Shown: positions 16,521-19,108 of the stretch, in pieces | Layout of the letters: every line of letters starts with the position of its first letter | Position numbering within the stretch: the first letter of the stretch is position 1 | Assembly (NCBI GenBank): GCA_038881895.1 | Contig: JAVZOV010000004.1 | Location: 98,521 to 160,554, forward strand | Reading direction: 5' to 3' | Source of the DNA: Thermoprotei archaeon | GTDB lineage: Archaea > Thermoproteota > Thermoprotei > Gearchaeales > WAQG01 | Length of the DNA stretch: 62,034 bases | The notes under the pieces: model-generated | Told to the model about the DNA's origin: nothing | Databases searched by the model: none | What the model saw: only the letters and a program-made list of their open reading frames with translations | Made by a program: the position numbers and the translations under genes

Positions 16521-16557
16521 GCCTTAGTCAGCTGTTTCGAGACAGATAGGTTTAAAT
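16521..16557 (+). promoter_or_regulatory. Left end and promoter of the IS607-type element
   Basis: A 37-nt stretch matches 61944-61980 at 29 of 37 positions without gaps; the last 14 nt (agataggtttaaat) are identical. The ggtttaaat part is a plausible TATA box, placing the transcript start near the GTG at 16582. This is best read as the conserved left end of a mobile element that also carries its promoter. Confidence 0.55.
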
Positions 16558-16581
16558 GGTAGTTTGTTAATTAAGTTATTT

Positions 16582-16761
16582 GTGGAAAAAAGGGAAAAAT
16601 TGTTGACAACAAGTGAAGTTGCCGAGGTACTTAATGTTACAAGACATACCGTAGCTAAGTGGATTAGGGAGGGAAGAATCAACGCCATCAAACTCCCTGG
16701 TGGAAGGTACAGGATACCAGAATCTGAGGTTGAAAAAATATGGAAGTCGTTAAAGCGGTAG
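16582..16761 (+). CDS. MerR-like HTH protein: DNA-binding domain of an IS607-type TnpA without the resolvase domain
   Basis: 59 residues if read from the GTG at 16582 (65 from a TTG at 16564). The sequence LLTTSEVAEVLNVTRHTVAK followed by WIREGRINAIKLPGGRYRI is the helix-turn-helix and wing found at the N-terminus of IS607-family serine recombinases. In those proteins a ~130-residue catalytic domain follows; here the frame stops at KIWKSLKR, leaving only the DNA-binding part. The stop overlaps the tnpB start by 22 nt, so the two are translationally coupled. It may be a remnant, or a stand-alone DNA-binding protein kept with TnpB. Confidence 0.8.
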   Translation: MEKREKLLTTSEVAEVLNVTRHTVAKWIREGRINAIKLPGGRYRIPESEVEKIWKSLKR

Positions 16762-17891
16762 TTTTCAAACATAACGCTGATGTCAAGCCCCTGCTTGAGA
16801 CTTTCAATCAAATGGTTAATGAATGCATGGCTTATGCCTTAAAGAACAATATCAGCTCTCCAATGAGGCTTGAGAGGGCGTTGTATGATTATTTCAAGCA
16901 AAGATATGGATTCGCCACCCATTATTGTATATCAGCTTGTAGAGTAGCATGTGGAATAATACGTTCTTGGAGGAGGCTTGTGAAGAGGGGAAGAGCCGAC
17001 TCCAATAAACCTCCAACTTTTAAAGCCTCAGCCATGAGGCTTCAGAAGGAGCTTATGCGTTTCAGAGGAGATAAAATAGTCGTTACAATAAAGCCTTACA
17101 GCTGGATCGAAGTTCCGCTGGCCACAGGCTCTTACCAAAGACAATTTGTTGAGGGATGGAGAGAGGGAAAGTTAAAGGTTGGGGAAATCACGTTACTCAA
17201 CGATAGAGCGATTGTAACCTTCAAGAAAGAGGTTGAAGAGAAAAAGCCTAATGGCTACGCTTCAGTAGACATCAACCTAATGAGCTTAGATATACTTGAA
17301 GCAAAGGATGAGCTAAAATATCGGAAAATCGACCTTAAGAAACTGTACGGCGTAAGGGTTCATTATTTTGAGAAACGTAGAAAAATCCAGTCTCTATCTA
17401 AATTCAAGCCCAAGACTTCAAAGATGCTTATGGAGAAATATTCTAAGCGTGAGAAAAGAAGGGTCAGCGACATCCTTCATAAAGTAACCACGGCAATCGT
17501 TAGAGAATTCATTGAAAACGGCGTTAGCCCGATCCTTGAGAAACTAAAAGGGTTAAGCTACAACGCAACGAGGAATAGATACGCTAAACGTAAGAATAGA
17601 AAAGTCTCCTCCCTACCTTACAAGAAAATCCAAGACTTCATTGAGTACAAAATGGCGTGGCATGGCTACAAAACACACTATGTTTCAGCTAAGAACACGA
17701 GCAAGACCTGTCCAAGATGCGGGCGTTTGTCCAAGACAAATGGGCAGGTCTTTAAATGTGAAAGTTGCGGATATGGGGCGGACAGACATTTTATAGCTTG
17801 TGTGAACATACTCAGGATGTGGGGAAAATGGTTCTCCCCGAAAGCTCTCGATGAACTAATAGAGAGGGAAGGGTTAAGTAGGAATACATAG
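16740..17891 (+). CDS. tnpB: TnpB, RNA-guided nuclease-like protein of an IS607-type element (RuvC-III Asp position is His)
   Basis: 383 residues, full length for TnpB. RuvC-I Asp177 lies in YASVDINLMSLDI and RuvC-II Glu267 in PILEKLKGLSYN. The zinc ribbon is complete (CPRC 324-327, CESC 340-343). The RuvC-III motif, usually RDxNAAxNI, reads RHFIACVNI, so His350 replaces the position that aligns with the catalytic Asp of TnpB/Cas12; Asp348 stands two residues earlier. The protein may be nuclease-dead or belong to an archaeal subgroup with a shifted acid. It overlaps the HTH gene upstream. Base composition is less AT-rich than the neighbours, consistent with transfer. Confidence 0.9.
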   Translation: MEVVKAVVFKHNADVKPLLETFNQMVNECMAYALKNNISSPMRLERALYDYFKQRYGFATHYCISACRVACGIIRSWRRLVKRGRADSNKPPTFKASAMRLQKELMRFRGDKIVVTIKPYSWIEVPLATGSYQRQFVEGWREGKLKVGEITLLNDRAIVTFKKEVEEKKPNGYASVDINLMSLDILEAKDELKYRKIDLKKLYGVRVHYFEKRRKIQSLSKFKPKTSKMLMEKYSKREKRRVSDILHKVTTAIVREFIENGVSPILEKLKGLSYNATRNRYAKRKNRKVSSLPYKKIQDFIEYKMAWHGYKTHYVSAKNTSKTCPRCGRLSKTNGQVFKCESCGYGADRHFIACVNILRMWGKWFSPKALDELIEREGLSRNT

Positions 17892-17930
17892 TGAATTGTT
17901 ACTTTCATTCCTACTTAACTCAGAACCCTT
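17869..17930 (+). ncRNA. Hairpin at the tnpB 3' end, candidate omega-RNA scaffold
   Basis: The last codons of tnpB (AAGGGTTAAGTAGGAAT, 17869-17885) pair perfectly with 17907-17930, giving a 17-bp stem interrupted by a 7-nt bulge and closed by a 21-nt loop that contains the stop codon. TnpB guide RNAs are made from exactly this position (tnpB 3' end plus right end), so this may be the scaffold. A simple terminator hairpin is the alternative; no T-run follows. Confidence 0.5.
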
Positions 17931-19108
17931 AAAGGTAATTTATGTCAACAATACCAACATCCTTGCAAAATTTGTACAAAAAACACGTAACATAAAATAT
18001 AACATAACAGATCTCAAAGATCAATGTCTTAAGATAAATAAATCATAAACATTTCATAGTAAACTAAAAACAAACTAAACCCATGAAACTACTCCTCAAA
18101 CCGAGCTTAATATCAAAGTAGAGTGAATCATTTCCGAAAACTTCCGGAAGTACTCCTTAACCAGATTTTCAAATGCTCTCTTGCTCTTTGGGATATGTAA
18201 ATTAAACTTAGTGATGCAGCATACTTATCATAGTCTCATTCATGATACATTAGAAGGGTATGTCCCCAAGTGTTTCTCTAATATGGTAAGATTCTTTGAA
18301 GAAGCTTGCGATAATTTGTCAATATAAGCATAACTTTCTTGATTAACTAAAAGCACCGCTAAAATTTTAGATACTTCAATATATTCCATATTTTATCATG
18401 AAAATGTATAGTACAATTTTAAATTTAGTGTCGAAATAGTTCTTAAAATTTAAAGTATATGTAATTTAATGAAGCGTCTCGCTTCTGAGAATTCATAAGT
18501 TTATGTTCTGTGATAAAGTAGGATGAGCCAAAAGTTTTACTGTGATAAGTCAGAGGACAAGAAAATTATGTTATGTTTCCATTATTAGAACAAAATTTAG
18601 GTAATGGATGATTGTGATATAAAGTTTATCTTGCAGTTTTAAGGAAAACCGATGCAATAGGAAAATAAGCAAAAGAGACAAAAGTAATGAAGATAAGGTA
18701 AACTAAGTTTCATGAGTGTAGTGGGGCTAATGTTTACTTTATGTTTTGGAAATTTCGCATTCTTATTTAAATTCACAATTTTTGCATTTCCATTTTTGTT
18801 GTAGGATTTTTTGAATATTTCTAGTATTGTTTTTTCAAGTTTTTTACTCCATTTTCATTCTATGCTTCTGATAGTGACTTTGATTCATTTTCTTAGGTAA
18901 CGCTTATTGGATGTCTGAATCTCTAGAGCTTTTGTTAGGTTCATGATGTTTTAGCTATGAAATAATTCTAAAGATGTGGAGTAGCTTAGTCATTTTGTGG
19001 TAATATAATATATTATGAGCTAAAGATAATAAGACGAAAGAGAATTGTTCTGGATCACGATAAAATTTAAATATTGTGAAATACACTTTTTTAACGGGTG
19101 TTCTTGAA
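17931..19108. other. AT-rich intergenic stretch with no gene recognised
   Basis: About 1.2 kb with stops in all frames and no tRNA or clear repeat. The first part lies next to the transposon and could hold its degraded right flank. I see no coding remnant that I can name. Confidence 0.5.

What the first reader, a model, noticed from the sequence alone, without database searches (positions are those of the whole stretch)
16521..17930. HTH-only TnpA coupled to a TnpB with His at the RuvC-III acid: possible guide-directed regulator
The IS607-type recombinase is reduced to its DNA-binding domain (59-65 codons), its stop overlaps tnpB by 22 nt, and tnpB is otherwise full length with RuvC-I Asp177, RuvC-II Glu267 and zinc ribbon intact. 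The RuvC-III motif RDxNAAxNI is RHFIACVNI, so the position aligned with Cas12a's last catalytic Asp is His. Nuclease-dead TnpB-like proteins (TldRs) that repress transcription with a guide RNA are known in bacteria; a pair of a DNA-binding protein and a possibly dead TnpB in an archaeon could be a comparable system. A strong hairpin spans the tnpB stop, where guide scaffolds arise. Alternatives: an archaeal TnpB subgroup with a shifted acid (Asp348), or plain decay.
Basis: partly seen in the sequence, partly recalled or inferred. Interest (0 to 1): 0.68.

Follow-up and report, generated by a model that had tools for sequence, protein, structure and literature searches.

The report
HTH–TnpB jumping element, rewired nuclease
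This archaeal locus is not a one-off broken gene pair but an intact member of a family of small jumping DNA elements that have lost their own cut-and-join enzyme, yet still carry a DNA-binding protein and an RNA-guided protein whose cutting site looks moved rather than destroyed.

Summary
In detail: a 59-65-codon HTH ORF overlaps a 383-aa TnpB by 22 nt; Asp177, Glu267 and the zinc ribbon are intact; position 350 is His; a strong hairpin spans the stop. The unit is a complete mobile element (16521-17928). Its left and right ends are sharply conserved in relatives from other hot-spring archaea, and the DNA beyond them differs from copy to copy, which is the omega-RNA/guide boundary. HTH-only + TnpB is common here: about 22 sister copies with canonical DRD, plus copies made by in-frame deletion of the recombinase domain from full-length TnpA. 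Both proteins are under purifying selection. His350 is conserved in the window's clade and in a separate clade whose elements keep full-length TnpA, so it is not a mark of domestication. TnpBs lacking Asp350 (His or Gln) almost all carry a new Asp at position 184; none of 101 Asp350 proteins does. The acid appears relocated (RuvC-III to RuvC-I strand 2, not to Asp348), arguing for a rearranged rather than dead nuclease. Best reading: a non-autonomous IS607-type element, mobilised in trans by resident full-length TnpA. The regulator hypothesis lacks positive support. Cleavage is untested.

The parts
16521..16560 (+). left end (LE) of the element: GCCTTAGTCAGCTGTTTCGAGACAGATAGGTTTAAATGGT
   Evidence: abrupt conservation boundary shared with relatives in other genomes, ~22 family-A copies and full-TnpA family B; ends good to about 2 bp
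16551..16558 (+). TATA-like box (TTTAAATG) about 25 nt before the GTG start, suggesting a leaderless mRNA
   Evidence: conserved in most LE copies; promoter role inferred
16582..16761 (+). HTH-only TnpA derivative (GTG start, 59 aa; 65 aa if TTG 16564 is used)
   Evidence: Pfam HTH_17/MerR-type only; dN/dS 0.06-0.08 against L059/L061
16740..17891 (+). TnpB, 383 aa, D177/E267 kept, H350, D184
   Evidence: AF2 pLDDT 90.7, Foldseek best hits Cas12f, then TnpB/Fanzor; dN/dS 0.05-0.18 in the clade
17268..17270 (+). codon of Asp177 (RuvC-I)
   Evidence: invariant column in A1
17289..17291 (+). codon of Asp184 (RuvC-I strand 2), candidate relocated acid
   Evidence: Asp in 28 of 33 proteins without Asp350, 0 of 101 with it
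17538..17540 (+). codon of Glu267 (RuvC-II)
   Evidence: invariant column in A1
17787..17789 (+). codon of His350 (canonical RuvC-III Asp position)
17866..17928 (+). 3' omega-RNA scaffold / right end: outer GGG-CCC helix and 15-bp stem 17871-17885/17907-17921, ending CTCAGAACCC
   Evidence: covariation; abrupt right-end boundary
17929..17948 (+). predicted guide position (host flank): TTAAAGGTAATTTATGTCAA
   Evidence: first bases after the conserved right end; unique in the own genome at <=3 mismatches

Best explanation
The locus is one intact copy of a non-autonomous IS607-type mobile element. It encodes (1) an HTH-only derivative of TnpA that recognises the element's ends and/or its overlapping promoter, and (2) a TnpB that makes its own guide RNA from the transcript's 3' end and binds, probably cuts, DNA matching the sequence next to the element. 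The missing serine recombinase is supplied in trans by full-length TnpA of sibling elements with the same end motifs. TnpB has not simply lost its RuvC-III acid: a new acid (Asp184, strand 2 of RuvC-I) goes with loss of Asp350, giving a rearranged active site. Shown: anatomy, ends, multi-copy spread, selection on both proteins, hairpin covariation, co-switch of 184 and 350. Inferred: trans-mobilisation, HTH target, guide-RNA use and cleavage.
For: Ends. HTH-only with DRD TnpB in ~22 own-genome copies. In-frame resolvase deletion in family B keeping HTH and C-tail. Full-length TnpA in the own genome; family-B-like TnpA in 7 of 11 genomes searched, partial in some. H350 conserved in loci of other genomes; H350 in elements with full-length TnpA. 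Purifying selection: TnpB dN/dS 0.05-0.18, HTH 0.06-0.29. D184 with non-D350 in 28 of 33, with D350 in 0 of 101; about three co-switches on a tree built without these columns; same pairing in IS607 elements with full TnpA on Sulfolobus and Methanocaldococcus plasmids and in Sulfolobales viruses. Precedent for RuvC rearrangement with function: PMC10278001 (an RII-r5 ortholog cleaves) and PMC10711439 (repositioned glutamate in pro-Fanzors/Fanzors).
Against: No cleavage data for any D184/H350 or D184/Q350 TnpB were found. Whether the Asp184 side chain reaches the metal site could not be measured (no coordinates). Only about three independent co-switches (sign test cannot reach 0.05), and three DRQ/NRQ proteins (L033, L037, L198) lack both D350 and D184. 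Family-B-like TnpA was not found at E<=1e-20 in four of the eleven genomes searched. Several relatives are pseudogenes (L060, L064, L069, L070, L072).
Confidence: 0.72

Rival explanations
1. Guide-directed regulator (TldR-like): the TnpB is nuclease-dead and, with the HTH protein, represses a host target chosen by its guide RNA.
For: His at the canonical catalytic Asp; intact RNA scaffold; HTH and TnpB both under purifying selection. Cas12m shows that atypical RuvC sites can be bind-only (PMC11013384).
Against: Transposon ends kept, multi-copy, different flanks at every copy; window guide without a second genomic match; D177/E267 fully kept and D184 gained; H350 also in elements with full-length TnpA; no conserved non-transposon neighbour seen.
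Confidence: 0.12
2. Plain decay: a defective deletion derivative whose proteins no longer matter.
For: Resolvase domain missing; several relatives carry frameshifts or stops (L060, L064, L069, L070, L072).
Against: dN/dS 0.05-0.18 for TnpB and 0.06-0.29 for the HTH; conserved H350, covarying hairpin, many copies in T. tikiterensis.
Confidence: 0.08
3. Acid shifted to Asp348: the nuclease is active using Asp348 in place of Asp350.
For: D348 is present in DRH and most DRQ proteins.
Against: D348 is equally present in most D350 proteins, and L036 (NVQ), L041 (HAQ) and L201 (NRQ) lack both D348 and D350 but have D184.
Confidence: 0.06

Closest known systems
IS607-family insertion sequences (e.g. 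ISSis5 on Sulfolobus islandicus plasmid pYN01)
   Same: HTH at the N-terminus of TnpA, tnpA stop overlapping tnpB, TnpB with D184 and no D350 (Q350)
   Different: window element lacks the serine recombinase domain and has His350
TnpB clades with rearranged RuvC (RII-r3, RII-r5, RIII-r4; Nety 2023 PMC10278001, citing Altae-Tran 2023)
   Same: canonical RuvC residue replaced in transposon-borne TnpB; one RII-r5 ortholog shown to cleave
   Different: here the residue lost is RuvC-III Asp and the covarying gain is Asp184; whether this equals RIII-r4 could not be checked (paper not held)
TldR, TnpB-like nuclease-dead repressors (Wiegand 2024, not held; described in PMC13418256)
   Same: TnpB-derived protein with a missing canonical RuvC residue and a guide RNA scaffold
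   Different: still in a mobile element with ends, variable guides, D177/E267 kept, no associated host gene
Pro-Fanzor IS607 TnpBs with repositioned glutamate (PMC10711439)
   Same: active-site rearrangement in an IS607 TnpB lineage
   Different: RuvC-II glutamate moved there; RuvC-III aspartate here

Membership tests
IS607-family element | MerR-type HTH at the N-terminus of TnpA, overlapping tnpB | tested here: met
IS607-family element | serine recombinase catalytic domain in TnpA | tested here: not met
   no resolvase match in the HTH ORF; so filed as a non-autonomous IS607-type derivative, not an autonomous IS607 element
IS607-family element | ends like those of full-TnpA elements in the same genome | tested here: met
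RNA-guided TnpB | family profile and fold | tested here: met
   guided_TnpB above cut-off; AF2/Foldseek Cas12f and TnpB
RNA-guided TnpB | 3' stem-loop at the right end followed by a variable guide | tested here: met
RNA-guided TnpB | canonical RuvC triad D-E-D | tested here: not met
   H350; candidate replacement D184
RNA-guided TnpB | guided DNA cleavage | not testable with these tools
   needs biochemistry
TldR | nuclease site inactivated | tested here: inconclusive
   H350 but D177, E267 kept and D184 gained
TldR | guide matching a host target elsewhere in the genome | tested here: not met
   20-mer unique at <=3 mismatches; shorter matches not tested
TldR | loss of transposon context, association with other genes | tested here: not met
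   ends conserved, multi-copy, flanks unrelated

The most novel reading that the evidence does not exclude
HTH-only + TnpB elements are a recurrent, stable two-gene class of non-autonomous transposon in which the HTH protein controls or competes with resident full-length transposases, and the D184/H350 TnpB is an attenuated or altered-specificity nuclease (for example a nickase or binder) that shares the omega-RNA scaffold, and hence guides, with the many canonical DRD copies in the same cell.
Probability: 0.15. Interest if true: 0.75.

Novelty: new variant of a known kind. Interest (0 to 1): 0.5.

Why it matters
A His or Gln at the last RuvC acid is easily read as 'dead TnpB'. The co-switch of residues 350 and 184 gives a simple sequence test (is there an Asp at D177+7?) that may separate rearranged nucleases from truly inactivated ones, which matters for annotating TldR-like regulators and for mining compact nucleases. 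The HTH-only elements show that IS607-type elements have shed their recombinase more than once yet keep, under selection, the DNA-binding domain with TnpB, raising the testable question of what that domain does.

Tried and rejected
Scans of viral contigs with the window TnpB, a DRQ TnpB and the full-TnpA DRH TnpB found no relatives; a profile scan failed for lack of conserved stretches. Altae-Tran 2023 and Wiegand 2024 are not held. Asp348 as the relocated acid was considered and rejected. A single origin of all non-D350 TnpBs was considered: on the tree the window clade is separated from the full-TnpA DRH clade by supported branches, but no AU test was run, and a gain followed by reversal in family A is not excluded; either way the two positions switch together. 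Rfam has no match at the hairpin at gathering thresholds. A first attempt at reading minus-strand loci was wrong and was redone.

Full report
What is there. The window holds an HTH ORF (TTG 16564 or GTG 16582 to 16761) and a TnpB ORF (16740-17891) that overlap by 22 nt. The HTH protein matches only HTH/MerR-type and 'excise' models and positions 2-45 of the 187-position IS607 transposase model. The TnpB passes the guided_TnpB cut-off, folds confidently (pLDDT 90.7) and its best structural matches are Cas12f, with Fanzor and TnpB lower down. D177 and E267 are invariant in a 36-protein alignment; position 350, aspartate in solved relatives, is histidine.

It is a mobile element. The search for related loci gave 16 loci in other archaeal MAGs; their TnpBs are mostly 67-93% identical to the window's, except the degenerate L074. 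Aligning their flanks shows an abrupt left boundary, GCC[GT]TAGTCAGC.GTTTC..AATAGATAgGTTTAAATA (window 16521), and an abrupt right boundary..TACTTAACTCAGAACCC (window 17928); beyond both, sequences differ between copies. One genome (T. tikiterensis, G044, apparently the same as G101) has about eight complete or partial copies of the window's clade, some of them at contig ends. The right end carries a 15-bp stem with an outer GGG/CCC helix; over the 15 pairs counted, 95% of cells pair against 16-54% for slid controls, with changes on both sides in 6 of 12 inner-stem pairs. What follows the right end is, by position, the guide; the window's 20-mer has no second match in its genome at up to 3 mismatches.

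HTH-only is recurrent. The own genome has 64 TnpB matches. About 22 (family A) have an HTH ORF, mostly ~72 aa, overlapping a canonical DRD TnpB and share the window element's ends and hairpin although the TnpBs are only 34-43% identical to the window's. Family B has a full-length 214-215-aa TnpA (HTH + resolvase), ends of the same type and DRQ TnpBs. Inside family B, L027 and L029 carry in-frame deletions of the recombinase domain that join the HTH to the C-terminal tail, and other copies show matching 92-aa HTH frames. So HTH-only forms can arise from full TnpA and then spread, most simply by trans-mobilisation; TnpA close to family B's is detected in 7 of 11 genomes searched, some of it partial. 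Two different HTH types accompany the window's TnpB clade. Both ORFs evolve under purifying selection: TnpB dN/dS 0.05-0.18, HTH 0.06-0.29.

The RuvC site. Every TnpB of the window clade whose RuvC-III motif is covered reads DRH, apart from one DRP pseudogene. A second clade (L099, L132-L136 and fragments) also has DRH in all covered copies, except one DKH in a stop-riddled copy (L138), and in most copies whose upstream DNA is held it follows a full-length TnpA. Scanning alignment columns for acids that appear when D350 is absent gives position 184: Asp in 11 of 11 window-clade proteins, 6 of 6 of the second clade, 7 of 9 DRQ proteins then in hand (all of family B), and 0 of 47 D350 proteins. 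In 144 TnpBs, 28 of 33 without D350 have D184, and 0 of 101 with D350 do (one of the 28 is a second copy of the window record, one of the five exceptions is the misaligned fragment L246 and one is a D350N member of family A). L036, L041 and L201 have D184 but neither D348 nor D350. On a tree built without columns 184, 348 and 350, the two positions switch together about three times and never in opposite directions; this is too few for a sign test to reach significance. The same pairing is present in IS607 elements with full-size TnpA on a Sulfolobus plasmid (ISSis5), a Methanocaldococcus plasmid and in two Sulfolobales viruses. In the model position 184 lies on the strand after Asp177 (182-188) and 350 on the first turn of helix 349-360; whether they meet in space could not be measured.

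Interpretation. These data fit a rearranged, probably active site better than a dead one. RuvC rearrangements are known: one RII-r5 TnpB cleaves (PMC10278001), and pro-Fanzors/Fanzors have a repositioned glutamate (PMC10711439). A bind-only outcome remains possible, as in Cas12m with H-D-D sites (PMC11013384). A RuvC-III-rearranged clade (RIII-r4) is named in PMC10278001; I could not check whether it is this one, so the rearrangement itself may already be catalogued. From my own knowledge, Altae-Tran 2023 reports rearranged and inactivated catalytic sites in several TnpB branches.

Against a guide-directed regulator: ends and mobility are kept, guides vary, no host-gene association or second guide match was seen, and the same residue change occurs in elements with a full transposase. 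What the HTH protein does is the main open question; its binding to the ends/promoter is inferred from its homology to the TnpA DNA-binding domain and from the promoter lying within 40 bp of the left end.

Noticed in passing
window 17886-17906; L019: The hairpin loop of the window copy and of family-A copy L019 is the reverse complement of the loop in the other copies, as if the loop had flipped between the stem arms.
   Followed up: partly
L066 and L111: A DRH element and a DRD element from two different MAGs share the same variant RNA stem (TTACG.ATGTCTATAAATGACTACGTAA), although their TnpBs are only distantly related: ends or scaffolds may be exchanged between elements.
   Followed up: no
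L081 1465-3369 (G000:C3, about 48.9-50.8 kb): One 635-aa open frame carries both a resolvase domain and a TnpB, a possible TnpA-TnpB fusion in the same genome.
   Followed up: partly
own genome G000: Very high TnpB load: 64 matches to the window TnpB and 55 TNB-domain matches in 1.75 Mb.
   Followed up: partly
L011 (family A): One family-A copy has D350N without D184 (Met at 184), which looks like ordinary inactivation and is a useful contrast.
   Followed up: no
L203, L241, L242, L182, L205, L206 and others: A TnpB group with Gly at the RuvC-II Glu position (GNLKG/GKLKG) and NAD at RuvC-III, a different atypical arrangement, is common in these archaeal genomes.
   Followed up: no
L062: An intact H350 TnpB in T. 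tikiterensis without an upstream HTH ORF or recognisable left end.
   Followed up: no
L248 (virus SSV10), L249 (Acidianus tailed spindle virus): IS607-type pairs with D184/Q350 TnpB sit in virus genomes; in SSV10 both are annotated only as hypothetical proteins.
   Followed up: partly
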